A stretch of DNA of 64,000 nt from Desmodesmus armatus (taxonomy: Eukaryota; Chlorophyta; Chlorophyceae; Sphaeropleales; Scenedesmaceae). Where the stretch lies: NCBI GenBank assembly GCA_007449985.2, contig VIIQ02000667.1, positions 124,001 to 188,000 of the forward strand, given 5' to 3'. The notes beneath the pieces were generated by a model. That model did no database searches and had not been told where the DNA came from. It was given only the letters and a program-made list of their open reading frames with translations. The position numbers and the translations under genes are program-made. Numbering within the stretch: the first letter of the stretch is position 1; each line of letters opens with the position of its first letter. This document shows positions 2,211 to 63,956 of this stretch, one piece after another.

Positions 2211-5200
2211 TTAGTCAGTCAGTCAGTCAGTCAGTCAGTCAGTCAGTCAGTCAGTCAGTCAGTCAGTCAGTCATGCAGGACAGCATCTCAGTCAGTCATG
2301 CAGGACAGCATCAGGAAGAACGGGCTGAGTGGTTTATTAGCTCAGCAGTCATGACTTTACGGAAGTACGTGCAGCTGAGGATTGGCGCTGCCACTTAGTG
2401 CAGCTGGCGGAGCGCTGACCAGGGGGGGGGGGGTTGTAGTTGAGAAAATGTGCGCAAAGAAGTACTGCGCAGCTGCGGCGACAGCAGCTGCAGAGGCAGT
2501 GCCAAGGTCAGCAGTGCAGTCATACAGCATGTACGCAGGCAGGCAGCCAGACAGCAGCAGTTGAGCACTGTGACCAACTGACAGCTTGAACGCTGCTGCA
2601 ACATACATACACTTATCACGTCGTCAGTGCCAAGCACTCTCGTGTATAACCCCCATTTGCTGCATATTCCATACTCCATACTGGTGTGTCCCCCTGCAGG
2701 TGTGTTTGAAGGGCACCCTGTTCACGCCCCTATCCAAGAAGAACACCAGCACACAGTCCCTCAATGTGCAGCTGCGCAAGGACCTGGGCCTGGGTGTCAA
2801 CTTGGTGCACGGCTTCAGCCTGCCCAACGTGCCAGTGCGCCACCAAGACCTGGACATTGTGGTTATCAGGTGCGCTCACTGTTGCTTGGTTGTAGCTTTC
2901 TGATACAGCTCTATCTGTGTTTACGCTGTGTTTCAAACACAGCGTGGTTATCCGGTGCGCTCAATGCTGCTTGTCTTTGTTGCCGATAGATACAGCTCTC
3001 TCTGTGTTTGAAAGTGACTGCAGCGGGGGCTGGCGTCAGTGATCCTGTTGGATAGGGAATCCAGGGGAGACAGGGAATGCGGGGGAGTTAGCAGGGCGTG
3101 CAGCCAACAGGCGTACACGGGGTTGTTGCTGCTTCAGGGGTGCTAGCAGGGGGTGCAGTGCAGCTAACATGCGTACATCGGGTGAATAGACAGTCCCATG
3201 ATGTTGCAGTGCCACGCCCCCCCCGTTGCTGGCACTTGGTAGTGGCCAGCCGTATCAGTGGCAGTTCCGGCGGTTTCCTGAACATCAGGCTGGGTGGGCT
3301 TAGCAAAGTTGGCAGCGCCAAGCTTCCTAAGCTCAGTTGGTTTGATGCTGCAGCTGACAGGTGGCCTTGCAGGCACAGGGTCGGCGTGCTGCAGCACTGA
3401 CTGTATCGCGCCCCTCGTTGTTGCTGGCCGCGTTGTCTGTCTTGTTGTTCTGTTGCGGCAGGGTTGGCATGCTGCAGTGCTGACTGTGTTTCTGACTGGC
3501 CGCGGTGTCTGCCTTGTTGTTCTGTTGCTCCAGGGAGAACCTGGAGGGAGAGTACAGTGGGCTGGAGCATGAAGTGGTGGACGGCGTGGTGGAAAGCTTG
3601 AAGGTGAGGGTGGCGCTTCTGCAACATAGGGGCTGCCCCTAATGTAGCTACTTGCATTTGTTACTGCCTATGTGTGCACTTCAGCAATAAATATGGGTGC
3701 AGATGCGTGCCATTCAAGCATGTTTGTTTCAGGTTACGGCACCGGCAGGGTCTTGGTGTGAGTTGGGCTTGATGACTTCAGCGACGGTATTGCTGCATGT
3801 GTCTGTCAGGCACTGCGCCTGCTTGCTTATCAGTGCACATGCTGTGTCACACATCACCGGTGTGTGTTCTTGTATGGGTGTGGGTGTGTGTTTGGCATTG
3901 AGGATGCATGTGTAGCTAGCATACCATGAATTGTATGTGTGTCTGTGCCTCTGGAACACAGCTGCACCTGCTGCCGCCCTGCCTGCCTGCCTGCAGGTCA
4001 TTACTGAGGAGCGCTCCATGGCAGTTGCTGAGTATGCGTTTGAGTTTGCGTACCTGAACAACAGGCAGCGCGTGACAGCAGTGCACAAGGCAAACATCAT
4101 GAAAAAGGGAGACGGCATGTTCCTCAAAGTAAGTTGGGAAGCCTGGCATGGGGGTACAGGGCGTGGTGTCAACTTGTTGGGACGCACTTCACCGCTCAGT
4201 GTGTTTGTGTTGGTGACGCATACATGTTGACTCTGGCTGCTCTGCTTCATGGAAAGCAACTGCAATGATACCTGCACATTCACTCTCACTCTGCTCCTTG
4301 CAAAGCTGTTGATGTGACTCGCATCACTTCAGGGTGCACATGTACCACACGGCATGCCGCTGACCAAACCCCCGCCCCCCGGGTGTGATGTGCCTGCTGC
4401 CCCCCAGGGCCTGCAAGGCTGTTGCTGCCAAGTACCCCACCATACATTTGTGTTGTTGCGCACTTGTTGACTCAAATAGCTGCTCTGCTGCATCTGAAGC
4501 CACTGCCAATAATGTCTGCATGTTCTTCTTCTTCTCCCTCAGCCTTCTCTTTGCAAGGCTGTAGTTGAACCTCGTGTCACTTCAAATTACACAGCATGCC
4601 GCTGACCCCCTCCCCCCCCCTGGTGTGATGTGCCTGCGGACATGTAGGCGTGCAAGGCTGTTGCTGCCAAGTACCCCACCATCGAGTACACATGTGTCAC
4701 ACACCATGACGCTCCCCCCCCCCCGGGCGTGCAATGCAGTTGCTGCCAAGTACCCCACCATCGAGTACATGTGTCTCACAGCATGACGCTGACACCCCCA
4801 CCCCACCCCCACCCCCCCGTGTGCCGCCGCCCACCCTCCCCCCCCCCCCCCCAGGCTTGCAAGGCTGTTGCTGCCAAGTACCCCACCATCGAGTACACAG
4901 AGATGATTGTGGACAACACCTGCATGCAGCTGGTCAGCAGGCCCCATCAGTTTGACGTCATGGTCACACCAAACCTGTATGGCAGCCTGTGCGCAAACAT
5001 TGTGGCAGGTGGGGCAGGGCGGCAGCTGGCAGGCAGGGCAGATCTGCTCGGGGGTCTTTTATGTTCCTTGACTTGAGAGACTGAGGTTCGACAAGTTATA
5101 GGCCCTGTGGGCATCCTCATGAGGGGGCACGTGTGTCGACAGAAGGAGTACTTGGATACATGCAAGCTCAGTAACACTGTCCTACTAGATAGGCAAGCAA

Positions 5201-7286: not shown

Positions 7287-8349
7287 ATGAAGGTGGACGT
7301 CAGTATGATAGCAGTGCAGATCGCGGGCGATCGCGGGCTAGTCTGGGATATACAAGGTATGCAGCATATACAAACTCTTGATGGTGTTTGTAAAGCTACA
7401 TCTAGTTACCTTACCCGTGATTAACCGACTTTCGGCAACCACAACAGCAACTGCAGCAGCAGCAGTCAACCTTCTGACCTGTCGCATTGTGGGGTGGCAA
7501 CCGGGTGAGAGAGGATATTGAAACTGTTGCTCGACTCTTACCTCGTGCTGCAGATGTCCTCAAGCTCAGGAAGGAGTTCCGGCTGATTGGCTGCATGGTG
7601 GGCGGCATTGCAAGTGAGGACCAGCAGTCAGCAAGTCCGTGCAGGCATGATGATTTGTAATGCTGCCAGTGTTGTTCAGGCCGCCTATATATGCAGCACC
7701 CGGCTTTCATTCTTCCATCATTCGTCCATCGTCTGCCCCTAGACAGTCGCATCATGTCGCTTTGCAATTTCAACATAAAGGGTAGGGTCCACCGCACCCA
7801 CTGGCATGCACTTGCGCTGCTGTCCTGTTGCTGCGCAGAGTTTCAAAGCCAGGTGGCGGTGCTGGGGCTGCCTCTCCAGCTGTCCCCAGAGGAAGTGTCA
7901 CTGGCAGCAGCCGCAGGTGTGTATTCCGCTCACAAACTCTCAGCCGGACTGGACTGGTTGCAGTGTTGCCAACAGCAGCAGCAGTTGTTGCTCCCGTGCC
8001 GTACATATGTTGCAGTGGCTGGTGGTTGCAGCAACTGAATTGGCAGTAGGTTTGATGGCCTCACAGTGATAGTGGAAAGGGCCAGAAACAAGGGCACGAC
8101 AGGCGCGCAGCAAGTGCGAAGTACCAAGTAGCACCCCAGTCACACCCACAGCCAAAGAGATGCGCTTGGCAGATTGGGTGTGCATTGCGCTGTGTCCACT
8201 TCAGGCGTGCCTCGCCACACTTCACCCTCTCACAAAGCAGCAGATGAGAGCGTACTCCTTGCCTTGACTGAATTCATGCAACCAACAAACATTACGATGG
8301 GACTGCTGCAGGTTGGATCACACTGCATGAGCTCAACTTCACAATACCC

Positions 8350-8397
<48 letters not shown>

Positions 8398-8514
8398 GCA
8401 GCGGCAACGGCATCATCGCAAGGCCAACAGCCGCAGCAGCCGCAGCAGCAGCAGCCGCAGCCGCAATGGCAAGCAGCGCAACAGCAGCCGCAACCAACAC
8501 AACAGCAAGAAGAT

Positions 8515-8551
<37 letters not shown>

Positions 8552-8755
8552 TCGACCCAATGCAGTGTGATGGCCCTGCTGACGAGGAGTTTGACGAGTT
8601 TTATGCAGCCTACTATGGCCTGGACGCGCCACCAGCACAGCAGCAGCAGCAGCAGCTACAGCAGCAGCAGCAACAGCAGCAGCACAATGAACAGCCCATG
8701 CAACGACAACAGCAGCAGCCGGCAGTGGTGCCAGCGCAACCTGCTGCAGTTGAGG

Positions 8756-8786
<31 letters not shown>

Positions 8787-9669
8787 AGAGCCGCAGCCTT
8801 GGCAGGTCTGGTTGAAGGGCAACAGCAGGGTCACTGTGCCCCTGACTGCTGCTGATTCTGCCGCCACCATGGCAGACATAGCAAGCAGCCACAGCAGCAG
8901 CAGCGGGGGCACTACCGTCAAACCTGCTGCAGCTGCTGCTGGCTTGACTGCTGGCCGGCCTGACCAGCAGCAACAGCAAGGCCTAAGCACCAGCAGCAGC
9001 AGTGACAGCCCTTATTGCAGCTGCCAGCCTGTCAGCTGGCAGTATCCTTGCACCCCCATGCAGTGGCTGCGCCTGTCAGTCTTTGCAGACCTTCACTCCC
9101 GTGGGTTTTGTGTTACTGGGGGTGCCAAGTTTGGGGGTGACTACCTAGCATACCCTGGTGACCCCCACTTGTACCATGCGCAGTACGTGATCAGGGTTGT
9201 ACTGCCTGACCAGGTGCTAAACCCTAGTGTACTGCAGGGCCTGGCGCGTGGGGTGCATGCTGCTAGGAAGCATTTGGTGCTGGCAACTGTGCAGCCGGGG
9301 TGCATGCTGGCAGCTGCAGGAACAGCTGCAGGCGCGCAGGCAGCATCAGCAGCGGCAGGAGCAACAGAAGCAGGTATAGATGGCCAGACAGATTGCAGTG
9401 GGGGTAGTGTGGCTGCAGCTGCAGCCTTGACAGCAGCAGCAGTGGGTGGGATGAAGGTGTCAGCAGGGCTTGGTGTGGGCAGTAGTAGTGCAGAGGACAC
9501 CACGGCAGCTGCAGGGGCTGTTGCTGCAGCTACTACAGAGGCAGCGTGTCGTGTGTTGTTTGGTGGTGTTGCCCAGACAGGGCCTGTGCAGTTGGATGGT
9601 GCAGCAGGTGCCAGTGGAGCGCTGAGGTACCTCACGATAGCTAGGGAGACAGGATGGAGTGCTGAGTGA
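7287..9669 (+). CDS. SEN34: tRNA-splicing endonuclease catalytic subunit SEN34
   Basis: Four exons in phase: 7287-7356, 7554-7613, 7839-7916, 8312-9669 (TGA), about 521 aa. The N-terminal part reads LVWDIQDVLKLRKEFRLIG and then VLGLPLQLSPEEVSL, the small N-terminal domain of Sen34/TSEN34. The C-terminal nuclease domain (about 9030-9290) contains FCVTGGAKFGGDYLAYPGDP followed by HLYHAQYVIRV and RKHLVLATV. These supply the Tyr, His and Lys expected of the family's catalytic triad. It ends in ALRYLTIARETGW, like the family's last strand. With SEN2, SEN15 and SEN54 it would cut introns from pre-tRNAs. The two domains are separated by a long poly-Ala/poly-Gln linker, and an Ala/Gly-rich insert lies between the catalytic Lys segment and the last strand. 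The protein is well above the roughly 310 aa of the human protein. The exon 3 to 4 join is chosen by phase. Confidence 0.93.
8350..8790 (+). repeat. CAG microsatellites coding for poly-Ala and poly-Gln in SEN34
   Basis: Several CAG-rich runs (8351-8398, 8518-8550, 8638-8680, 8758-8787) lie within the last SEN34 exon. In the coding frame the first is read as GCA (Ala) and the others as CAG (Gln). Confidence 0.9.
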
Positions 9670-33000: not shown

Positions 33001-36000
33001 GGTTGAGCAAAGCCAGTCAATCAAGTTGAATGGCCAGTACATTGAGGTGGCACACTTTCTTGGCAAGAGCAGCTGACAAGTTGTCAGCGGAATTTTACCA
33101 AGAAACTGTGCCACCTCTATGTCCTTTCTTGAATGAAAATGGTCAAGAGGGAAACATAGTATGCTGTCATGTAGGCGACACAACACACACCCGGGGCCCG
33201 ACCGCCTCCAGCCACGGAGCATCAGATGCTAGCAACACCCGTCGCCAAGCAGCACCAATTGCAGCTGCTGCGCCTAATCCAACCTCAGGTAGGTTGGTGT
33301 AGGTGTAGCCGCCGAACTTGATGCTGCTTCAAGCAGTGAGTCAGCCTGACCAAAGCCGTGCTGCAACCATGAATACCGTACTGCATTGCTGACCGTCAAC
33401 TCCCAGTACAACGGGCTGTGCAACATAGTTGTGTTGATGCCGCCGTTATCGACAGCATGCACTGCACTGGATGTTTGTGAGCATGGGCCACACTCGCAAT
33501 CTTCCAGTGCATTGCATGCTGTCAGTTACACAGCTCAGAGAACCAGCAATGCTGACCCCTGGTCACCGGCCCTGTGGTGCCCACCATTCACCTGCTCCGT
33601 GCAGACAGCTGACCGATGTCAAATGTCACGACAGGAAATGGCACAAGTCCTACTTAGCATTGTATGATGTGATCCTGCACACCAACCCATCACATGTGAT
33701 GCTGTAATACAAAGATGGTAGATGACCGTCGTCTTGGCTGTTATCGGACTTCATGCCAGTAGCTTGATGCATGCGGGCCACACACACCCCGGGACTGAGT
33801 CCCGAGTGCAAGAAAGCTGCTCAGTCTGATGCTGCGTCCGATGACAGAATATATGAGTCACAGCACCCCCTTGCGAGGCGGCAACATGTGCAGCAGCTGC
33901 ACCTGCACAAACATCAGGTAGGTTAGTGTAGGTGTAGCAGCCACACTGGTCACTGCTTGCACGGGTTTTGGTTAGTGCTCTCAAGAATGTGCCACCTTGC
34001 TTGACAACAAAGTGTTATGCATAGTGCTTGCTGACATCCAGCAAGAAGAAGCCGTGACGGCGCCATCCACACAAAGCACAAAGCTCAGCTAGGAGTGCGG
34101 CGAAGCAGCAGCAAACATTGTTGCATGTTGAGACTACCACGGAGTCCGTGGTAGTCTCAAATGTGCAAGATTGGATCTTGCACAATTCCCGGGTCAAAAA
34201 AGTCACAAAGTCGGTTTCTAAGAACTCAGCCTACGCATGCTCCATGGTCTGTCCAGCAGAAGCCAACAGTGCAAGCCGTGTGTGCAGGCGACCATTTACA
34301 TGCTGCAGGCTTGTGCACGGCACATCGATGAAGCTGTGCTGGACCAGCGCGGAGGACCCCATGGAATATTCCTTTGATAGGGGTGTGAGCCTGGGCGGAT
34401 GCGCACGGGTCGTCCCCCCCCCCCCCCCCCCCCATGCTCTCCAAGCTGCACCCATGCCTCCAGCAGGCCTAGGACCAGCCTGTGTTGAACACACCTAGAG
34501 GCACAGGCCCTGCCAGACCCAGCAGCACACCTGCCCGTGGCCACACTAGCGAAAACCTCATGCCAGAGCATAGGATAGCTGTGCCTGTCTGCGCAAACTC
34601 AGCTGCTCCATGCTCTGGCACAAAGCATTCAATACATGGGGCCACAGACCTTCAATGCATGGGGCCACAGCTTGCCCAACACAGTCCGCGAGGCCAGCCA
34701 GAAGCTGGATCGACTCAACAGCAAGGCCACCATTGCTTCCCTCAACAGCCAGTCCTGACATGTTTGCTGCCTGTCGTGTCCCTGCCAGGCCGACGCCGTG
34801 CCAGCCGCTGACAAAAAGGGACACAAGCCCACCACTCCTAGAAGCCATCATCAACAGCCTGCATTTTGAAATTCAGGTGGATCAGGATGGCCTCCCGCAG
34901 CGGCAAGACCAAATAGGGCAGGGTGGCGCCGGCCGGCAGCGGCCGCCAACGAGGCAAGCACTGCTTGCCTCGATCATGTAGACCGCGGTTCGCTGCTTAC
35001 ATACCCATACTGTAGCCCAAAATGTGCAGCTACAGTTCTAATAATAAGAATAAAGAGATACAAAATCATTTAGTTTTAGATTGTTTTCATCCGCACAAGA
35101 AGCACGCGGTGTACATATTTGAGTGCCTGTCAGCGCAGAAGCGCTACGTTGGCGGCCGACGCCAACACGGTGTCTCCCCCAGGACAAGATACAGCCTGCA
35201 GCCCCGGCATGAATGCCGCACTGGATTGCTGGCCGTCATTACCCAGTGAGCAAGATATACGTGTTGGTGCCACCGTTGATGACTGCATGCACTGCACTGA
35301 GTGTTTGTGAGGAAGGGTCATCTTCACAAACCACAGTGCAGTGCATGCTGTCAGTTACGAAGCTTGAAGAACCAGCAATGCTCAGCCCTGGTCACCAGCC
35401 CTGTACTGGCCACCATAAACCTGCATCGTGCAGAAACCAAAATTGAATTGTCATAGCAGCTGAAGATGCACACAGTACCACTTGCAATGCATGATGCAAT
35501 TTGCACATCAACCTATCACATGTGATGGTGTGATACAAAGACAACCCTGCGGCTGTATTCGGATATTCCGCCAGTAGCTCCATAATCGAGCATCGATCAT
35601 GGCATGCGGGCCACACACACCCTGTCCGAATGTTATAACAGCTGCAAATCATTAGGTCATCGCAGTGCCCCCTTGCTAACCGGCAACAAGTGCGATAGCT
35701 GCACCCACTAAAACCTCAGGTAGGTGAGTGTAGGTGTAGCAGCCACACCTGTCGCTGCTGGCAGGGTTTCAGCTTAGTGCTTTCGAAGATGCGTCGGCAC
35801 CTTGTTTGGCGCTCAAGTACTCCAAGTGTGTTACGCATAGTGCTTGCTGACATGCAGCAACCAGAAAACAGCCACAACCAGACAGACCCTAGCTAGGAGT
35901 GTAAACTTCAAGTAGCAGCAAACATGCCTGCAAGTACTTTTGCCAGTACATCTCAGTTCGTAACACCGTGACAAGGAGGCGGAAACAGTTGGCAATGCCT

Positions 36001-39000
36001 AGCATCTTTGCTGTGGTAACAGCCAATCTTCCGACCGTTGGACTCCGACGCTCTACTAGACTGAGGCTTAGTGGCCACAGACTACCAGGCTATGGCATAG
36101 TCTGGTAGTATGCCGTGATAGAATCGTTCTTCAAGCCACACATGTGGCACCCGGTGCCACTAGTAGTACTATGACAGTAGCTGGCAAGCCCAGCATGCTC
36201 GCTACCGTTATAGTACTTCTACACAGACACAGAGTGCCACTCTGTGTGCAAGTACTGCCAGTACACTCAGTGAGTGTTGTAATGCTGGCAAAGGCCATCG
36301 CCCTGCAGCAGTGAGTTCAAACGCTGTCGCAGCGATTGCGCAACCCAACACCCGCGCGTCACTGCTTGCCAAGCAGTGTGAGAAGGCATTCATCAAGGCT
36401 TCTGTGGCATCTGACGTCACATACCCCTTTGATGAACGCTTTCCCGTACACTTCTCTCGACATGCACATCGCAACGTATGGTGCATGCAGACACCACCAA
36501 CTAAACCAGCAGCTACATGCACACAACCCCAGGTACGAAGGGCGGCAGTACCAAATTGTGAGGTGTAGCAGGCGCTGCTGCAAGGGTTGCAGACCTTATT
36601 GCTGCCAGTGCCTGTGGGCAAAAGCTGTGAGCAAGAAAAGATAGCACCCGCCGCCAGGCAGCAATCAGTGCAGCGGCTGCACCCACACAAACCCCAGGTA
36701 GGTTAGTGTAGGTGTAGCAGCCACATGTGTCTCTGCTTGCCAGGGACTTTGATGCTTCATTTCCCAACACCTCCCTCATGCACAGCTTGACGTGCGGTGC
36801 ATGCTGACATGCAGCAATCAGACAACTCAGGCTGCATGCACACAAAACCCAGGTACTACTCAACATCGCAAAAAAAAAGTGAAAGACAAAGGATGAAAAG
36901 AAAATGAAAATTTCTGAGACAGACACATTGACAGCACCCGCCGCCAGGCAGCAACAAGTGCAGCGGCTGCACCCACACAAGCCTCAGGTAGGTTAGTGTA
37001 GGTGTAGCAGCCACACCTGTCACTGCTGCCAGGCACTGTGGCTTGCGCTTTCATAAGCAGCGGCTGCTCAAAAATTGCCTGGCTGTTGGGTGTCAGGATT
37101 CCACATACAGTGTATGTGGAGGGCTGGCACCAACAGCCACGCATTTCAGCTGGCAGCTGAGGTTGAGCTGCAAGCACTCAACAACACAAGAAGTGCATAC
37201 CAGTGGCACTGGTAGTGAAGTTTGCATTGCGCAATGACACTGCCGGGCAGTGGACCGACAGTGCGGAGATGTGATCCACAGCCAACTTGCACTCAAACAC
37301 AGCAGCCCCTGAAAGGTGCAGTGGATCAGGTTCTGGAGGCCATTTTGTCATGGCCAGTACGTCTGGGGTGACACTTTGACAAATTATTGACAGCAGGCAC
37401 TGCATGGCAGCGCTGCCGTGGCACAAGTTACACAAGTAGTGCCGCCCACCTGACTACATGCTATGTACTGCACGATGCTAGTGACTGGCAGGCGACACAC
37501 ATGTACATGTCTTGGATCCGTTCTCATAGCACAGCCACTGTCAGGCATGCATGCGCAGTCAATGCAACAGCCCAGGCTGGAAAAGCTGTTCATTGACCGC
37601 GTAGACAAGCCTGGCATATCTGCACCCAACTTTCAGGCAGAAATTAGTGCAGCGGCTGCGCCCATACAAACCTGAGGTAGGTTAGTGTAGGTGTAGCAGC
37701 CACGCTGCTCACTGCTTGCAGGGGCTCTTGTTTGATAAAAAAAAGTCTCCAAAGGCTCTCACACACCCTGCTTGATCGTCTAGAAGTATGCACAGTGCTT
37801 GCTGACATGCAGCAACCAGACCAGCGGCTACATTCACACAAACCCCAGGTAGGCTAGTGTAGGTGTAACAGCTGACCTGGTTGCTGATTGCAAGCAGATG
37901 CTGTACTTTACAGGCTCCGTAAGCCCCACAGTGTGGCTGTTGCTAGCTACAACCAGCGCTGGTGGGATGGTGGACATTGAAATCCACCCCAACCACCAGC
38001 GCCGGTTGTAGCTTGACGCCTCACTGAATCAACCCGGTAGCATCAGGCTGGTGCCCCCACGAATCCTCAATACACAACACAGTGCAGCTTCAGTGACCCA
38101 TTCAAGCATTGAACAACGGTGCTGAGAGTGTCTCAACTTTTTCACCATAAAAACCACGGCCGACAGTCAAAACCGGTCTCGAACAAGCTGTTACTGTAGA
38201 GCAGCCACAGGGCATCTGAGCACCCACTGCCAGGCGGCAAGGCAACAAGTGCAGCAGCTGCACCCGCACAAACCTCAGGTAGGTTAGTGTAGGTGTAGCA
38301 GCCACACCTGTCACTGCTGGCAGGAGGCTCTGCTTTTACACTTTCAACCACGATCCTTGACATGCATAGCATCGGATGTTGCACGGTGCCCATCAACAGG
38401 CAACAGTACAGCCGGCAGCTACAGCCACACTGACCTCAGGTAGGTTAGTGTAGGTGTAGCAGCTGGCCATTTTGCTGTCTTGCGAATGGCAGTTTGCGGC
38501 ACCTTGCGGCAACATGACATCAAGTTGACCACTGTACTTGCGATGTGATGATGATGATGCAATGTCACGAACTGAGTAGCTTTCATCATGGTATGGGAGA
38601 GATGGGGAATTCTGGCAGGAATAAGGAGAGATGATGCAGCTATATGGAGGAGGAGAGAGGGGGTGCGCGGAGGGAGCTCGTTGCAAAACGTTTGGGAAAG
38701 CAGGCAGGGATGGGGATAGGGGGGAGGGGGGGGGGACAGAGGGGGCATGGCGGGAGGCAAAGAATGGGGCCAAAACAGTGCCTCCAAAGCGCCGAAACAA
38801 TGCAGTGTGTGGGATGCCACCCCACAGCGTGAGCTGGGCCAGTGCAGTTCCAGGCATAGATGCCTGGCAATGTACGCAGCAGCAACATCTGGAATAGCAA
38901 GCGCAAGCAACCCCATCACCCAGATCTTTCTCGATTGCCTGCCCTTGAATCAGGTTACTAGTGCTTGAAGTTCAAGGGCAGGCGACCAAGAAAGAACTAG

Positions 39001-55217: not shown

Positions 55218-56425
55218 CTAGAACAACAGTGATAGCAGCCCTGCACAGCAGCCGTACACTATGAACAGACCAAACAAGGGCATGACGATAAAGGTAGTGA
55301 TCACCACCATTGTGGCGATGCAATCAATGGCATTGGCAGGATGAGAAATAGCCCATGCACAAATTGTTTGAATGATCACTGCCAGGCCCTGGCCAGTGGC
55401 CCGGCCACTGCTCAGAGCAGCAAGGTACTTGCAGAAAGACCTCCACACACTCACAAGCGTCAGCGGCTGCCGCCGCTGTTGCTGCCGCAGCTGCAGCTGC
55501 AGCTGCTGTTGTACGATGCTGTGTGGTGGGATGGAGCTGTACCGAGCCTGGGCCTGCAGCTGCCTTGAGCGCTGGTGGGGTGGTGGCCTCTGCAGCAGCA
55601 GCTCCAGCCTTGTAGGTGGCCGAGGGGAGCCATTCGCATCGTTTTCATTGTGGCTCACGCTAGCTTCCGCATGCGCAGCCTCTGCTTGAGGGGCTTGTGC
55701 TGAGCTGTCTGCCGTTTGCGCAGTGAGCCCGAGGCACTTTGAGAGCCACCTGCGGCACCTTGCCCTCTTGCCTAACCTGCTGTTGTTGCTGCTGCTGTTG
55801 CTGCTAGTTGCATCAGGGGCGGCCCCAGGCACTGCTGCTCCAGTGTGACTGCTGTCTGCTGAGCGCGGATCATCCGCGGGCTGCATGCAGTTAGCGCTGC
55901 CACAGCTTGGCGAGCAGCTCCTCTCATGCGCACACTGCACCGCAGCCTGCAGTCATGGTCATGCAGTGCAAAGATCAGGGCGATAGCCGCCCGGTCAATG
56001 GTTGTCCATCTCTCTTGTGCCTGAACACAGTGGACGTCCAATTCGCATGCGCGTGAACCGTTCTGGCAGTAGACATCCATTTTGCATATGCATGAACACA
56101 GTGGACGTATCGTCTGTATGTGCATGAACACAGTGGACGCCCAGCTCTTGTGTGCATGAACACATGTCATCGTCAGAAACACCCCTGCACTCCCTCCATG
56201 CTCATTGTGTGCACTCACCCTCAGCACTGCAAAGTTGGTGGGCAGCTTCTGCTTGCCAAAGAAGCGACGGCAGTCTGGACAGTGCACAATGCGGCCTTGC
56301 TGGATGCATGTTGCACAGAAGGTGTGGCCGCATGGAAGGGACAGCGGCCTGTGGCAGCAGCCATTGAAGGCCTCAAAGCAGACGCCACACTGAAGCACTG
56401 AGCTCAACTCACTGACATGGGCCAT
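55218..56425 (-). CDS. RING-finger membrane protein, likely E3 ubiquitin ligase
   Basis: Two exons: 56425-56219 and 55946-55218 (TAG), joined in phase 0, about 311 aa. A C3HC4 RING fills residues 13-52: CGVC, then PCGHTFCATC, then HCPDC, with all zinc ligands present. It is followed by RRFFGKQKLPTNFAVLR, a common RING-adjacent sequence. The second exon is low-complexity (Ser/Asn/Ala, Arg-rich RRARCRRWL, Gln run) and ends in a strongly hydrophobic C-terminus (IATMVVITTFIVMPLFGLFI) that should anchor it in a membrane. RING proteins of this kind normally pass ubiquitin from an E2 to a substrate; the substrate is unknown. Two degraded copies lie at 28190-28679 and 42337-43581. The intron contains repeated TGAACACAGTGGACG blocks and is open in one frame. 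Confidence 0.85.
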
Positions 56426-57520
56426 GTCGTACAGGAGTGAGGCTGGTGATGCTCTTTTGGGCAGGACTGTGATAAGGAATGAGCCGTCTTATGAACTGTC
56501 ACATGCCAACAATGTGGAAGAAAACGGGTTGTTCTTCCTGTGCAAGTAGTGTGGAAGCTATCTGGCTTGACCTTCAGGGCAGCCTCCATGGAAAGGTCAA
56601 TGGAAGGCGAGGCAACCTGCGCATCGAAACGCTGCAACCGCACACGAATGGTTTTTGCACTATACAGCTCAACTTGCTTTAAATGTTTAAAAATTGGATT
56701 CGCCCAGTCGCGTCGCCTTGTAGTCCGAGGTTGCGCGCCATCTCCTCGGTACCGCTGACGTCATTCACCCTCGGTGTCACGAGCATGTCGTCAAGACTGT
56801 TTAATTGTGCAGCTTGCAGCGGCCTGCGATTCCTGATCATACCCAGCTGCTGCGGGGTTGAGGTTGGCACCCCTCGGGGGGCCCGGGGGTGGGGGTGGGG
56901 GACACTGTGATTTTCCCCAGTAGATAAAAGCCGCCTTGAAGGTTGTGCGCGTGAGTTGGTGATTGGTGATAGACCCAGTGACCCACACATGATGCAATCA
57001 CGTGCCAGTCCTGTGCTGCCTCAGAAATTTTTGAAATTTCTGTGTTTAAACCAGTGCGGCTGGTACTTGCTCGTGCGGGCTGATGCGGCATGCATTTGAG
57101 AAAACTGTTGCCGAGCCCTTCCACACCCGTAGGCTACATTGTGTGCATGGGCACTACAAAGCTCTAGCTGCCTTACAAAAGCTTGAAACTTTGCATTCAC
57201 ATTAACTTGGCTTTGCTGCACGGTTACTATCAGTGCGCACATGTGGAAGAACACATTCGTGCAAGGATACATCATCAAGCTTCAACCCGCTTGAACTTCA
57301 GCTCATAGTGCAAGTAGAAGTGGTGTTGAGTTTCATGTGTCCTCCTTTACGCTAAGCTGCAAGTACGTACACAACAACACCTGGGGCCAAAGGCAAGACG
57401 GCGTGTGCCCAGGTTGCCTGTAGTGCCTTGAACCCCCATCATGTGGCACATGCTGTAACAGCATGTCACATGTCACAGCACATTACATGCGGCTGTAATG
57501 TTCAAAACATCATGGCATAA
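56426..57520. other. intergenic space between two minus-strand genes
   Basis: No gene is recognised. It includes a GCATGCTGTAACAGCATG-like palindrome near 57450-57475 and the dispersed repeat shared with 54280-54350. Confidence 0.4.
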
Positions 57521-60500
57521 TCACAACTTGGGCTGCAATGCAGCCACTGCCTCAACAGCCTGCCTGAACACCAAACCCAGCATGTCACGGTCACTTGACA
57601 GGAACACTGGCTGCTGCTGCTGCTGCTGCTGCTGCTGGTACCCTTCCTCCACCCTTGACTGCTGCTGCTGCTCTAGCTGCTGCTGCTGCTGCTGCTGCTG
57701 AACCTCTAAAAATGGCAGGCTCTGCAGTTGCACCCCCTCCATGGCAGCCAAGGCCTCCAGCAGCACATCACAGAGTGATGTCACTTGAGCCTTGGTGTGG
57801 GCTGCTGACAGGCTCAACCGCAGCCGACACGTGCCTGCAGGGGTGGGAAGGGCAGGGAAGGCTTGGGTCAACGCAAGGTGGGTTCAAAACAGGACAAAAA
57901 TGGCAGTCTGCGATGATTGGTGTGAGCGGCTGACAGGCTCAACCGCAGCCGACATGTGCCTGCAGGGGGGCGCAGGCGCGGGGGGGGGGGGGGGGGGGGG
58001 GTCAAGCAATAATTGGGTGCAAGACAGAAACCCGATAGTCCGTGAAACAATGCGATGCTGAGTTGGCATCACCCAGTGAGGTCACTTGAGCCTTGGTGTG
58101 GGCAACTGACAGGCTCAACCGCAGCCGACACGTGCCTGCAGGGGTGGGAAGGGGAGGCAGGGGGTGTGGTAATAAGTGGGTGGAAGAATGCAGCATGGTG
58201 GTCTGCCAGACCGGCAATTGGCAATCCCACCGCAACATCCTTGCCGGGACGCTAAGCACAGCGCAACCAGAAGCATTTGCTGCATTGTGCCTCTTCCCTC
58301 TCATGCTTGATGCGACCATGCTCTTTGTCTTGTTCTTGTTTAGTGGTTGTTGTTGCTACCATAGTTTGTGCCAGTAAGTCATACGAAATCCTTCCTGCAA
58401 AGAGAACACCTTTGACGTAATCAATTTTCATACTCCTTTGCATACCATGGGTGGGCGTATGACCGGCAAGTGCAACCCTGCTCCCAGCATGTATCCTGTC
58501 TCCAGCACCAAACAGTACTAGTACCTGCGGGCACCGTGGGCGGGCGTATGGCGGGTACGTGGAACCCTGCTTGCAGCAGTGTCCTGCTGAGCCCTAGTGC
58601 TGCTGCCTCACTGCCCACCACCAGGGGGATGATGGGGCTCACCACAGGCACGGCCAGGCGGGTGCGCACCAGAGACATCAGCTCATGCAAGTGCTGCTGA
58701 CGCCAACGCTCCCTGCATATGGCGGCGGCAGCAGCAGCAGCAGAAGACATGAGTACTGAGGTGCAATATGCGAACCAATGGCACGGCCAGGCGGGTGCGA
58801 ACCAGAGACATCAACTCATGAAGGTGCTGCTGTCGCCAACGCTCCCTGCATATGGCGGCAGCAGCAGCGAAGACAAGTCAGAGTTGTGTAACTACAGGCA
58901 CAGCCAGGCGGGTGCACACCAGAGACATCAGCTCTTGCAGGTGCTGCTGGTGCCAACGCTCCCTGTAGATGTCAGCAGCAGCAGGTGCCAGGAGCAGCAG
59001 GAGAAAAAGTTGAGTGTGTGATCTGAGCAACTTGATTGAATGGGTATAAATGCGGAAGACACAAACCCACACAGGCGCACAGGGCGCCCCCCGCCCTCCG
59101 CCCCCCGCCCCCACCCATTTGCCTATCCACCCACCTTGCTGCCACTTGTATGGCTGCGTGTACTGCCACCACAGCCACAGGCAGTGTCGTGCTGATCACC
59201 ACACTGCGGCCCTCTTTTGGCAGCAAGGCCAGCCTGGAACATTCACTGCACAGGTCCAGGACTCATTTCTTGAAGCACATGTGCTGGTACCCCCCCCCCC
59301 ACGACCCCCCCCCCCCCCCCACACACACACACACACACACCCACGCCTCCCATGTGCATGGCAGCCCTGTGCTCATCCACCCACCTTACTGCCACCTTTA
59401 TGGCTGCCTGTGCTGCTGCTACCACCGGCACAAGAAATCGTCTGCACAAGGCACCCCCACCCCCACCCCCACCCCCACCCCGGACCCCACCCCCACCCCC
59501 GATGTCCCTACTGACCTACCTTGCTGCCACCTGTATAGCTGCCTGTGCTGCTGCCACCACAGGCAGAGGCACAAGAAAGGGTGTGCAGAAGGCAGCCCCA
59601 CCCCCACCCCCACCCCCATGTGCTCATCCACCCACCTTGCTGCCACCTGTATAGCTGCCTGTGCTGCTGCCACCACAGGCACCGGCAGCGCAGTGCTGAA
59701 CACCACACTGCGGCCCTTGTTCAGCAGCAGGGCCCGCAGGCTGCTGCTGCAGGCTACAAAGCCACCCAGCGCTCCAACAGCCTTGCTCAGGGTACCTGCG
59801 CGTGTGCGCGCGCGGGGGAGGGGGGATGGTGCACAACATGTTGATTGAATGTGAGCGCACATGTGTGTGTGTGTGGTGGTGGGGGTGGGAAGGCTATTGG
59901 GCTGGAAGGAGGTGTGCAGATGGGGCAGGATGTAGAGGAGCAGGGCCTCAGGCTTTTGCTGCAGGCAGCACCCACGCAGCCGCACCAACAAACACCCCCC
60001 AACACCACGACCACGGCTGCAAAGCTGAATTTTACTCGCCTGCCGGCTGGCTCAGCCTCGCCACCGCGCTTTCCTAGCACAAGTAAGCCAACATGATGTG
60101 CCAACAGAAAGTACCACCCCGCGCTTGTCACAGCTCAATAGTGAGCACACCAACTGGAGGGTTGCCATCCCTCCCCCCCCCCCCCTACCCACCCCACCAA
60201 CACCAACACACCATTGCCCCCGCCCCCCAAAAGTGCATTTGGTATGCGGCCCCACACCAAAACACCAGCACTCCATCCTCTTGTGCCCGACGGCATTGCC
60301 CAAACAATCAACTTGCCAGCTGTGGGTATGTCTGCCCCTACCTGTGTGTACGTCCATGTGTTGGGCCACCCCTGCTGCCTCTGCTGCCCCTCCACCATGC
60401 TGCCCCGCCACCAGGGTAGCATGAGCCTCATCAACCACTAGCAGGAAGCCATAGCGCGACCGCAGCTCAACCAAGCCCTGTGCAGCATGATGCAACACAA

Positions 60501-62512
60501 TACAGTAACAACAGTGGTGGGCAGCGCCAGATCTATGTGTGGGGGATTGGTGGTGTTTGTATGTGTGTGTGTGTGTGGGGGGGGGGGGGGGGTGGGGGGG
60601 TGGGGGGGGGGGGGGCAGGCCTTCAGCGTGTGCCTCATCAACTACCAGCAGCAAGCCATAGCGCGAGCGCAGCTCAACCAAGCCCTGTGCAACATGATTT
60701 CACAACACACAGCAGTGGAGGGCAGCGTCAGGTCTTTGTTTGGGGATTGGTGGTGTTGTGTGTGTGGGGGGGGGGGGCTTTCGGCATGTGCCTCATCTAC
60801 CACAAGTAAGAAGCCATAGCGGGACCCCAGCTTGACCAGACCCTGTGGAAAAACACAGTGCAACACAACATAGTGACACACTGGTACACGAATCCATGGA
60901 GGACAGCGCCTGTCATGGGTGTGGATGGGTGGGTGAAAGAAAGAAAGAAAGATACAGAGACACCCCCTTGGTCTCTTAACGCCATAGGACTTTGTCCCAT
61001 TGGCCTCGCGTCCGTTGAGGACGGCTCTTCATACCAACACGCCTGGGGGTCTAGGGCAATGGCACTCGTGACCACATCTCACTCCCCAGGGGCACACCTG
61101 GGTGGGTGGGTGGGTGGGTGGGTGGGTGGGTGGGTGGGTGGGTGGGTGGGTGGGTGGGTGGGTGGGTGGGTGGGTGGGTGGGTGGGTGGGTCAGGGCCCT
61201 CGCAGTTACTAGTAATGCAGAAACAGGACCACATAGGTATCAGGTCATGTGAAATAACAAAGCAAGGGGTGCTGCATGACAGGGAAATGTCAGGAGCAAG
61301 GAAGGGTTGAAAGGGTGGTGACTGCAGCACAATCAGGTCAAGAGGCAGCAGTGGTTCCATCTCCCCTTCCTACTGCCCTCCACCACACCCAACTTGCCCC
61401 CTCACTTACAAACCACATGGCAACAAAAGCCACTTGTACCACCCCCTCAGGAACAAATACCCCCCCCCCATCCCCCTGCCTACCACACACACACACACCT
61501 TGAGGTCAGCGTAGTCTCCATCCATACTGAACAAACTGTCAGTCACCACCATTTTCCTCACACCCCCAGGCAACCCCCTCAGCAGCTGCTCCAAGTGCTC
61601 CATGTCATTGTGCCGATACACCAACAGCACCACACCAGACCCTCCCTCCCCCCCCCCCCCCCCCCCACACACCAACACACAGACTGTTCTGTTGCTGTAT
61701 TATGGCGTAGGGCGTGACTAAACACCCACAACAGCCCCCCCCCACACAAAACACACATACCTTGAGGTCAGCGTAGTCTCCATCCATACTGAACAGGCTG
61801 TCAGTCACCACCATCTTCCTCGCACCCTCGGGCACCCCCCTCAGCAATTGCTCCAAGTGCCCCATGTCATTGTGCCGATACACCAACAGCACAACACCAG
61901 ACCCCCTCGATTGTAGCCTAGGACCCCGAACACAAAGATGGCAACTATTTTGGAGAGCCCCCCCCCCTCCCCCCCCCCCCCCCACACACACACACCTTGA
62001 GGTCAGCACAGTCTCCATCCATGCTGAACAAGCTGTCAGTCACAACCAGCTTCCTCAACCCCTCAGGCAGCCTCTGCAGCAGCTGCTCAAGATGACTCAT
62101 GTCATTGTGCCGATACACCAACAGCACCACACCAGACCCTCCCCCCCCCCCCCCCACACACACACACACCAACACACAGACTGTTATGTTGCTGTATTAT
62201 GGTGTAGGGCGTGACTAAACACCCACAACAGCTGCCCCCCCCCCAACACACATACCTTCAGATCAGCATAGTCTCCATCCATACTGAACAGGCTGTCAGT
62301 CACAACCATCTTCCTCGCCCCTTCAGGCAAACCCCTCAGCAGCTCCTCCAAGTGCTCCATGTCATTGTGCCGATACACCCACAGCACCACACCAGGCCCC
62401 CGACACGCCAGCCTCGCCCCATCAATGATCGACGCATGATTCAACTCGTCACTGAGAATGTACACCTCTGCCTGCTGCTGCTGCTGCTGCTGCTCCTGCT
62501 GGGAGCTGGGTG

Positions 62513-62592
<80 letters not shown>

Positions 62593-62771
62593 GCTAAGAC
62601 TGACACTACTGCTGTGTTGGCAGCAAAGCCTGTTGGGAACAGCAGTGCATCCTGAGTGCCTTTGAGTCGAGCTAGAGCGAGCTCCAGCTGCCGGTGTGCA
62701 TTGGTGAAGCCACCCACAAGGGCAGAGCTGCGGGGACCACTGCCAACCTGCAAGAGAGGGGGGGGGCAGCA

Positions 62772-62839
<68 letters not shown>

Positions 62840-62880
62840 TGCAAGGAGTCAGTGTTGTTTTGTAGCAACAGTGACAGCGT

Positions 62881-62951
<71 letters not shown>

Positions 62952-63956
62952 GCAGAAGTGGCGGCAGTTTGATGAGGTGGCAGCAACATCATGTGAGTGC
63001 CTTCAGCTGAGCAAGCACTGGGTTCAGCTGCCAATATGTGCTTGCATGAAGCATACACATTTGTGATTGGGGGCGGAGCGAGCCACAAACAGACCACTGC
63101 AGAAAGGAATAGGGAAGAAAACAAGCCACAGCTACCCCCCCCCCCCAAGAAAGCTCCCTGATTCACCTGTTGTGCTGCTGCTGCTGTCACCGCCCTGACA
63201 TCAGGATGTGCTGACAGTCCCAGGTAGTCATTCAGACCAAGTTCAACATATTCCAATATTGGTTGCAAGCCATAACTGCTCCATATCTTGTGCGTGGCAT
63301 TGAGTTGAAGCTTCAGATGGAAGCACCCCAACCAGTCCCCCCCCCCAGCCCCCCGGAGGGGCGTTAAACGTCACCCCGCGCCTCCCTTGGTTCACCTGTT
63401 GAGCTGCTGCTGCTGTCGCTGCCCTGACATCAGGGTGCGCTGACAGTCCCAGGTAGTCATTCAGACCAAGTTCAACATATTCCAATATTGGTTGCAAGCC
63501 ATGACTGCTCCATATCTTGTGCGTGGCACTGAGTTGAAGCTTCCGATGGAAGCACCCCAACCAGTCCCCCCCCCCCCCCCCCCCCCCCCGGAGGGGCGTC
63601 AAACTTCACCCCGCGCCTCCCTGGTTCACCTGTTGAGCTGCTGCTGCTGTCGCTGCCCTGACATCAGGGTGCGCTGACAGTCCCAGGTAGTCATTCAGGC
63701 TGAACAGCACCAGCCGCCTGAAACCAGGGACATCTACCAGCTGCTGCTGCTGCTGCTGTTGCTGCTGCTGATCCTGACATGGCTGTAGCAGCTGTTCACA
63801 CTGTTGCTGCGGGTATGTGCCCAAGTCCTGCTGCTGCTGTTGCTGTTGCTGCTGCTGCTGCTGACTAACACTGTGACTGCTGTCTGGTCCAGTGCAGCTG
63901 TCAGGTGAAGGTTGGCCCGCCAGCCAAGCATCAAACTCAGCTTCATGGATGTACGC
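57521..63956 (-). CDS. BIO4: 7-keto-8-aminopelargonate synthase (biotin synthesis), 5' end outside the window
   Basis: Visible exons in phase: 63956-63630, 62747-62256, 60477-60342, 59795-59636, 58712-58525, 57834-57521 (TGA), about 540 codons; earlier exons lie beyond 64000. Alpha-oxoamine synthase motifs in order: [114 protein letters not shown] (PLP lysine), [41 protein letters not shown] and [16 protein letters not shown]. The pattern matches plant BIO4 and bacterial BioF, which join pimeloyl-CoA (or pimeloyl-ACP) and L-alanine with PLP. Poly-Ser and poly-Gln inserts from CTG repeats interrupt the domain after [14 protein letters not shown] and pad both ends. Each visible exon has two or three partial copies beside it. 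Confidence 0.95.
57915..58135 (-). repeat. two extra copies of the 5' edge of the last BIO4 exon
   Basis: The acceptor and exon start ([17 protein letters not shown]) recur upstream of the true exon, starting at 57959 and 58135, each with a TGCAG acceptor. The first stays similar only to about 57921 (an AAHTNH variant). The second continues through HTKAQVTSL with Ala changed to Val. Confidence 0.88.
58776..58962 (-). repeat. two extra copies of the 5' edge of the fifth visible BIO4 exon
   Basis: The exon start read as [20 protein letters not shown] recurs starting at 58845 and 58962 (the latter read as [20 protein letters not shown]), each with an acceptor (TGCAG or TACAG). Both stop resembling the exon after AVPVV. 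The true exon starts at 58712. Confidence 0.9.
59135..59575 (-). repeat. three extra copies of the 3' edge of the fourth visible BIO4 exon
   Basis: The exon end ([16 protein letters not shown] and donor) recurs downstream at 59575-59520, 59440-59385 and 59240-59135, each with an intact GT donor (GTAGGT or GTGGGTGG). The last copy also includes the [11 protein letters not shown] part as [12 protein letters not shown]-rich and ACAC tracts separate the copies. Confidence 0.9.
60624..60842 (-). repeat. two extra copies of the 5' edge of the third visible BIO4 exon
   Basis: The exon start ([20 protein letters not shown]) recurs starting at 60684 and 60842, both upstream of the true exon at 60477 and both with CAG acceptors. 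Each ends after EAHAE and runs into a C-rich tract. The farther copy reads [18 protein letters not shown]. Confidence 0.9.
61096..61191. repeat. tetranucleotide TGGG array
   Basis: About 24 uninterrupted TGGG units in the long intron of BIO4. The G-rich strand could fold as a quadruplex. Confidence 0.95.
61499..62140 (-). repeat. three extra copies of the 3' edge of the second visible BIO4 exon
   Basis: The exon end ([20 protein letters not shown] ... [13 protein letters not shown] and its GT donor) recurs downstream at 62140-61996, 61905-61761 and 61645-61499. All three keep the frame for about 45 codons. Most differences are synonymous or conservative ([57 protein letters not shown]). The minus-strand bases before each copy are G-rich, not a polypyrimidine tract, so they lack a normal acceptor. 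Confidence 0.93.
62465..62952. repeat. CTG/CAG microsatellites in and beside a BIO4 exon
   Basis: CTG runs at about 62471-62497 and 62511-62588 lie inside the second visible exon and are read as poly-Gln and poly-Ser. CAG runs at about 62768-62840 and 62881-62950 lie in the intron just upstream of it. Confidence 0.95.
63167..63575 (-). repeat. two extra copies of the 3' edge of the first visible BIO4 exon
   Basis: The exon end ([23 protein letters not shown] and donor) recurs downstream at about 63467-63396 and 63237-63167. The copies sit in a roughly 230-base tandem unit that also holds a CCAATATTGG-containing block and a C-run. The unit's non-exon part is not seen beside the true exon. Confidence 0.9.

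What the first reader, a model, noticed from the sequence alone, without database searches (positions are those of the whole stretch)
57521..63956. Every visible exon of the biotin gene has tandem copies of one edge
All six visible exons of BIO4 have two or three extra copies of one splice junction, 14 in total. Three exons have copies of their 3' edge and donor lying downstream; three have copies of their 5' edge and acceptor lying upstream. That geometry is what results when a segment crossing a splice site is tandemly duplicated, because only the outermost-joined copy stays attached to the full exon. Duplication of splice-site-bearing segments is a known model of intron gain and growth; finding it at every exon of one gene is, as far as I know, unusual. 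The copies differ from each other, so simple assembly stutter is unlikely.
Basis: seen in the sequence. Interest (0 to 1): 0.88.

Follow-up and report, generated by a model that had tools for sequence, protein, structure and literature searches.

The report
Tandem copies of exon edges
In this green alga, short stretches of DNA that straddle the border between an exon and an intron have been repeatedly duplicated into the intron, lengthening it and leaving extra, intact-looking splice sites; the biotin gene is an extreme case of something also seen in several other genes.

Summary
The minus-strand gene is a bioF/BIO4 gene; all 14 partial copies exist, and each keeps its splice-site GT or AG. 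Corrections: a weaker 15th copy makes exon 5 duplicated at both edges; one internal intron has no accepted copy; a first exon outside the window has none.

It is not unique to this gene. In 7 chaperonin genes chosen without regard to repeats, 9 of 122 edges have copies; in a SKI2-type helicase gene, chosen because repeats were seen there, 8 of 34. BIO4 is the outlier at 7 of 12. Wrong-side introns gave 0 of 118. Copy-bearing introns are longer (median 678 vs 335) and usually hold a simple-sequence tract (11 of 12 vs 11 of 55); both hold without BIO4.

Best explanation: slippage or template switching near simple repeats duplicates segments across splice junctions, and introns grow because the exon-attached site is still used. 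This is intron growth, not demonstrated intron gain. Whether edges exceed intron interiors depends on the counting.

Unexplained: the exonic parts of copies show too few replacement changes (pairwise omega 0.26; dead copies should give at least 0.5). No transcripts or relatives were available.

The parts
63630..63956 (-). BIO4 exon E1 (second coding exon; a first exon lies outside the window at 64300-64413)
   Evidence: spliced protein alignment
63366..63464 (-). copy 1 of E1 donor edge, 99% identical, keeps GT
63159..63235 (-). copy 2 of E1 donor edge, 92%, keeps GT
62256..62747 (-). BIO4 exon E2
62000..62127 (-). copy of E2 donor edge, 84%; GT present 4 nt beyond this local alignment
61729..61906 (-). 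copy of E2 donor edge, 89%, keeps GT
61489..61633 (-). copy of E2 donor edge, 90%, keeps GT; 61461-61906 and 61958-62401 are an 88% alike two-unit block (offset 497)
60342..60477 (-). BIO4 exon E3
60629..60709 (-). copy of E3 acceptor edge, 91%, keeps AG
60786..60874 (-). copy of E3 acceptor edge, 79%, keeps AG
59636..59795 (-). BIO4 exon E4
59514..59571 (-). copy of E4 donor edge, 95%, keeps GT
59371..59431 (-). copy of E4 donor edge, 92%, keeps GT
59125..59233 (-). copy of E4 donor edge, 85%, keeps GT, one 3-nt gap
58525..58712 (-). BIO4 exon E5
58774..58868 (-). copy of E5 acceptor edge, 92%, keeps AG
58891..58984 (-). copy of E5 acceptor edge, 87%, keeps AG
57521..57834 (-). BIO4 exon E6 with stop codon
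57917..57963 (-). copy of E6 acceptor edge, 94%, keeps AG
58067..58157 (-). copy of E6 acceptor edge, 93%, keeps AG

Best explanation
These are local tandem duplications with offsets of about 90-260 nt, some repeated serially, whose units straddle an exon-intron junction. They are probably generated by replication slippage or template switching promoted by simple-sequence tracts (poly-G/C, GT, GGGGGT, CAG, telomere-like GGGTTA) in the same introns. A duplication wholly inside an exon would change the protein and is usually lost. One that crosses a splice site adds its copy to the intron, and is tolerated if the splice site attached to the exon body goes on being used. The intron lengthens and fills with partial exon edges carrying good but unused splice sites. 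This happens in several genes of this alga; BIO4 is an extreme case. Shown: the copies, their geometry, their locality, recurrence in other genes, association with simple repeats and longer introns. Inferred: the molecular mechanism, that the copies are skipped in splicing, and tolerance as the reason they survive.
For: Edge probes searched in the intron on the other side of the same exon hit 0 of 118; the best score in any non-adjacent intron of the same gene reached 50 for 0 of 134 edges. The one E2-edge copy searched genome-wide occurs only at this locus (4 hits). Copies recur in CCT5, CCT8, CCT4, CPN60 and SKI2, and none were found in CCT1, CCT2, CCT7. 23 of 35 copies bring recognisable intron sequence (alignment z at least 4). 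E2 shows a two-unit block. Introns with edge copies are longer: 12, median 678, vs 55, median 335, p 1.5e-5; without BIO4, 8, median 599, vs 53, median 326, p 7e-4. They hold a low-complexity tract of 16 nt or more in 11 of 12 vs 11 of 55; without BIO4 7 of 8 vs 9 of 53, and among introns of at least 375 nt 7 of 8 vs 4 of 19. Of 31 copies assessed, only 4 would leave an open in-frame product if their splice site were used (three CPN60 rows rechecked with the right frame, same answer).
Against: Exonic parts of copies evolve as if partly constrained: pairwise omega 0.26 (edge bootstrap 0.19-0.35) when dead copies should give at least 0.5; simulated dead copies give a replacement fraction of 0.57-0.59 +- 0.04 against 0.42 observed, none of 400 runs per setting as low. 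Zero stops in 672 codons against 3.1-5.0 expected is weaker: 4% of the simulations also had none. Simple neutral tolerance does not predict the omega. The simple-sequence tracts could be a product of the duplications, or spread with them, rather than a cause. No transcripts were available to show that the copies are skipped.
Confidence: 0.78

Rival explanations
1. The copies are functional: alternative exon edges used in some transcripts, so their coding content is under selection.
For: Pairwise omega 0.26, no stops in 672 codons, one frameshifting and three in-frame gaps in the exonic parts of 35 copies against 41 gap events in 916 complex intron columns. Acceptor copies look more constrained (24 replacement of 71 changes) than donor copies (55 of 114). 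Splice-site scores of copies equal those of parents (5.30 vs 5.33, 31 copies).
Against: Copies are truncated at one end and not attached to an exon body; using their splice site would in 27 of 31 cases shift the frame or meet a stop. One of the 35 exonic copies is probably one copy split in two by an insertion (CPN60 exon 6), which understates gaps.
Confidence: 0.12
2. Assembly artefact: collapsed or stuttered reads inflate copy number.
For: Some copies are identical or nearly so (E1 copy 1 has 0 of 69 exonic differences; the CPN60 donor-edge copies are identical to each other); a likely one-base error in the CPN60 exon suggests the assembly is not base-perfect.
Against: 28 of 35 copies differ from the parent's exonic part by 5-20%; the pattern occurs in six genes on six contigs; the BIO4 contig is 389 kb long.
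Confidence: 0.04
3. Ordinary intronic minisatellites, with exon edges involved only because introns are short and units must often overlap an edge; nothing edge-specific.
For: Tile-wise, edges are not richer in copies than intron interiors (9 of 122 vs 28 of 262 outside BIO4); with introns capped at 250 nt the event excess outside BIO4 is not significant (p 0.13). This is close to the best explanation and mainly removes the edge-specific element.
Against: By events, 23 of 29 include an edge, expected 9.6 (present introns), 15.0 (335-nt cap) or 18.4 (250-nt cap), p under 1e-4, 0.002 and 0.04.
Confidence: 0.35

Closest known systems
[quoted passage not shown] potato RdRp case, PMC4974935: abstract and the Results and Discussion section read)
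   Same: A tandem duplication crosses an intron-exon boundary and copies splice signals and part of the exon.
   Different: In potato the duplication created a spliced new intron with RNA support. Here copies are serial, occur at many edges in several genes, and appear to lengthen existing introns; no new intron is shown.
Intronic minisatellite / VNTR arrays (named from general knowledge)
   Same: Head-to-tail units of about 100-260 nt, local expansion, simple repeats nearby.
   Different: The first unit is a live exon edge, so the array is anchored on a splice junction and the repeats carry a good splice site.
Introners (PMC9860276: search listing and start of abstract only)
   Same: Proposed source of intron sequence carrying splice signals.
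   Different: Introners copy themselves into many genes; the one BIO4 edge copy searched genome-wide was found only at its own locus.

Membership tests
[quoted passage not shown]
[quoted passage not shown]
   no transcripts; the BIO4 model needs no extra intron for an open frame
[quoted passage not shown]
   G000 has no relatives in the collection
Introner elements | similar copies dispersed in introns of many genes | tested here: not met
   E2-edge copy: 4 hits, all at this locus; only this one copy was searched genome-wide
Tandem exon duplication / mutually exclusive exons | complete second exon with its own acceptor and donor | tested here: not met
   BIO4 copies carry one edge and end inside the exon
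Minisatellite array | head-to-tail repeats of one unit | tested here: met
   successive BIO4 spacings 116-262 nt, serial copies; CCT5 and CPN60 arrays

The most novel reading that the evidence does not exclude
The exonic parts of the copies are under coding constraint, so they are not dead leftovers: exon-edge arrays would be a standing set of alternative or back-up exon ends maintained by selection in this alga.
Probability: 0.12. Interest if true: 0.85.

Novelty: new variant of a known kind. Interest (0 to 1): 0.52.

Why it matters
How introns get longer is mostly inferred from old, decayed sequence. Here recent and older duplications across splice junctions sit side by side in several genes, most carrying a competing splice site. 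That makes two questions testable in one organism: how often segmental duplication lengthens introns, and how the spliceosome ignores equal-strength decoy sites. The unexplained coding constraint on the copies, if it holds, would mean that such copies are used.

Tried and rejected
A functional-exon reading was tested by frame and stops and is not favoured. CpG context as the cause of the low omega was tested and rejected (0.28 without CpG sites). Shared parent-lineage changes were modelled and do not remove it. The first attempt to assign changes to copy or parent branches was judged confounded, because parent changes between successive duplications look copy-specific. One weak E4-acceptor match (three frameshifting gaps) was dropped before the 35-copy counts (36 found). 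Three CPN60 micro-exons and one CCT8 micro-exon from the aligner were dropped; the CCT8 model is weak between 2587 and 3903, so its event at 3200-3347, counted as intron-only, may be an unmodelled edge. The CPN60 exon-3 donor was placed 5 nt late and read in the wrong frame; the recount changes little (107 synonymous and 78 replacement changes instead of 106 and 79). A second family search (aldehyde dehydrogenases) was answered but not used. Rfam: no hit in the window. Paper searches listed no report of edge-copy arrays in an alga; I saw titles and starts of abstracts, passages of PMC8226300 and PMC5966456, and the abstract and one section of PMC4974935.

Its size and GC (115.8 Mb; 55-58% in three samples) resemble Tetradesmus obliquus (108 Mb, 57%, mean intron 462 bp; passages of PMC5966456), an untested guess.

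Full report
WHAT IS THERE. The minus strand from 63956 to 57521 encodes most of an 8-amino-7-oxononanoate synthase (bioF/BIO4). Six exons splice in frame to a stop codon and match TIGR00858 with E 2.5e-107 (359 bits, below that model's curated cut-off of 426 bits). A further, first exon lies just outside the window at 64413-64300. A 15th, weaker one lies on the donor side of E5. Intron 3 has no accepted copy, and the first exon has none. So 7 of 12 splice edges carry copies, and E5 carries them at both ends.

CHANCE. Edge probes (up to 60 exonic plus 15 intronic nt) scored 47-113 at these seven BIO4 edges. Of 1340 alignments to dinucleotide-shuffled introns the 99.9% quantile was 29 and none reached 50. 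Searching the intron on the wrong side of the same exon gave 0 of 118.

OTHER GENES. Exons were modelled by a spliced protein-to-DNA alignment that reproduced the hand-made BIO4 model. Nine of their 122 edges have copies, in 4 of the 7 genes. A SKI2-type helicase gene in a sampled 100 kb stretch has copies at 8 of 34 tested edges, but that gene was chosen because repeats were seen there. BIO4 was likewise picked for its repeats. Against the seven chaperonin genes BIO4 is an outlier (Fisher p 5e-5). Repeat density varies widely: 38% of 75-nt tiles in BIO4, 27% in one 10 kb bin of the SKI2 stretch, 0-12% in chaperonin genes, 1.6% in another 100 kb sample.

EDGE OR INTRON. By 75-nt tiles, edges outside BIO4 (9 of 122) are not richer in local copies than intron interiors (28 of 262). 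By duplication events, 23 of 29 (16 of 21 outside BIO4) include an exon edge. Uniform placement of units predicts 9.6 (7.6) with present introns, 15.0 (10.8) with introns capped at 335 nt, and 18.4 (13.1) at 250 nt; the last is not significant outside BIO4 (p 0.13). So an excess is likely but modest, and slower decay of exon sequence would also produce some of it.

MECHANISM. Introns with edge copies are longer (12 introns, median 678, vs 55, median 335; p 1.5e-5), and 11 of 12 hold a low-complexity tract of at least 16 nt against 11 of 55. Leaving out BIO4 the figures are 599 vs 326 (p 7e-4) and 7 of 8 vs 9 of 53; among introns of at least 375 nt, 7 of 8 vs 4 of 19. Recognisable intron sequence travels with 23 of 35 copies, and E2 shows a two-unit block duplicated whole. 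This fits serial tandem duplication promoted by simple repeats. The slippage or template-switch step is inferred, and the tracts could also be a consequence.

SPLICE SITES. In eight genes, 26 of 26 copies whose alignment crosses the junction keep GT or AG; 10 of the 36 did not reach it, and 6 of those 10 show the dinucleotide at the extrapolated place. In SKI2, 6 of 11 copies keep it, one reads AC and 4 do not reach it; over the 46 copies 88 of 92 dinucleotide bases match. Since a unit that crosses a junction includes the splice site at birth, only its retention is informative. Copy splice scores equal parent scores (5.30 vs 5.33; 31 copies), and using them would keep an open frame in only 4 of 31. 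Why the spliceosome should prefer the parent site is unknown.

AN ANOMALY. In 35 copies, synonymous differences run at 16.8% per site and replacement differences at 5.5%; the intron parts of 23 of them differ at 18.7%. If the copies were dead, replacement changes should run at about half the neutral pairwise rate or more. Pairwise omega is 0.26 (edge bootstrap 0.19-0.35) and 0.28 without CpG sites. There are 0 stops in 672 codons against 3.1-5.0 expected, though 4% of simulated dead sets also have none. The simulation, with shared parent changes, puts dead copies at 0.57-0.59 +- 0.04 replacement fraction against 0.42 observed; copies with omega near 0.5 fit. By codon position the changes fall 52, 37 and 105. 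Against a reading of function: intron alignments may include non-homologous columns, copies are few and related, most of the signal is from BIO4, and no outgroup was available. I treat this as unexplained rather than as proof of function.

KNOWN OR NEW. Tandem duplication across an intron-exon boundary is known from the potato RdRp gene, where it made a new intron (PMC4974935, abstract and Results section read). New here, as far as I could see, is the serial, multi-gene pattern anchored on exon edges in one genome, which lengthens introns. My nine paper searches listed no such report; the library lacks most subscription papers.

Noticed in passing
L010 (window-equivalent 64765-68541), minus strand: Upstream of BIO4 an element of 65-90 bp recurs about 8 times at irregular spacing; not identified.
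   Followed up: no
window 33238-38477: A family of roughly 70-110 nt repeats in direct orientation, about 74-90% alike, spread over 5 kb.
   Followed up: no
window 8272-9666 (+): ORF with a tRNA intron endonuclease catalytic domain, PF01974, E 8.6e-18, in a frame rich in alanine and glutamine runs.
   Followed up: partly
window 55775-56488 (-): ORF with a RING-type zinc finger, PF13445, E 3.4e-6.
   Followed up: partly
L031 4900-5200 (CCT5 intron): The intronic part of the CCT5 edge repeats is telomere-like (GGGTTAGGGTTAGGG).
   Followed up: no
L036 (CPN60 exon, oriented 3029-3221): The exon changes frame once between two conserved stretches, probably a one-base assembly error.
   Followed up: partly
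C526 sample, local 15889 and 22980: The same ORF and repeat block recur 7091 bases apart, which suggests a large tandem duplication.
   Followed up: no
C563 sample, local 66781-69984 (+): A 1068-codon ORF that looks like an endonuclease/reverse-transcriptase element lies inside the helicase gene region (label by eye, not tested).
   Followed up: no
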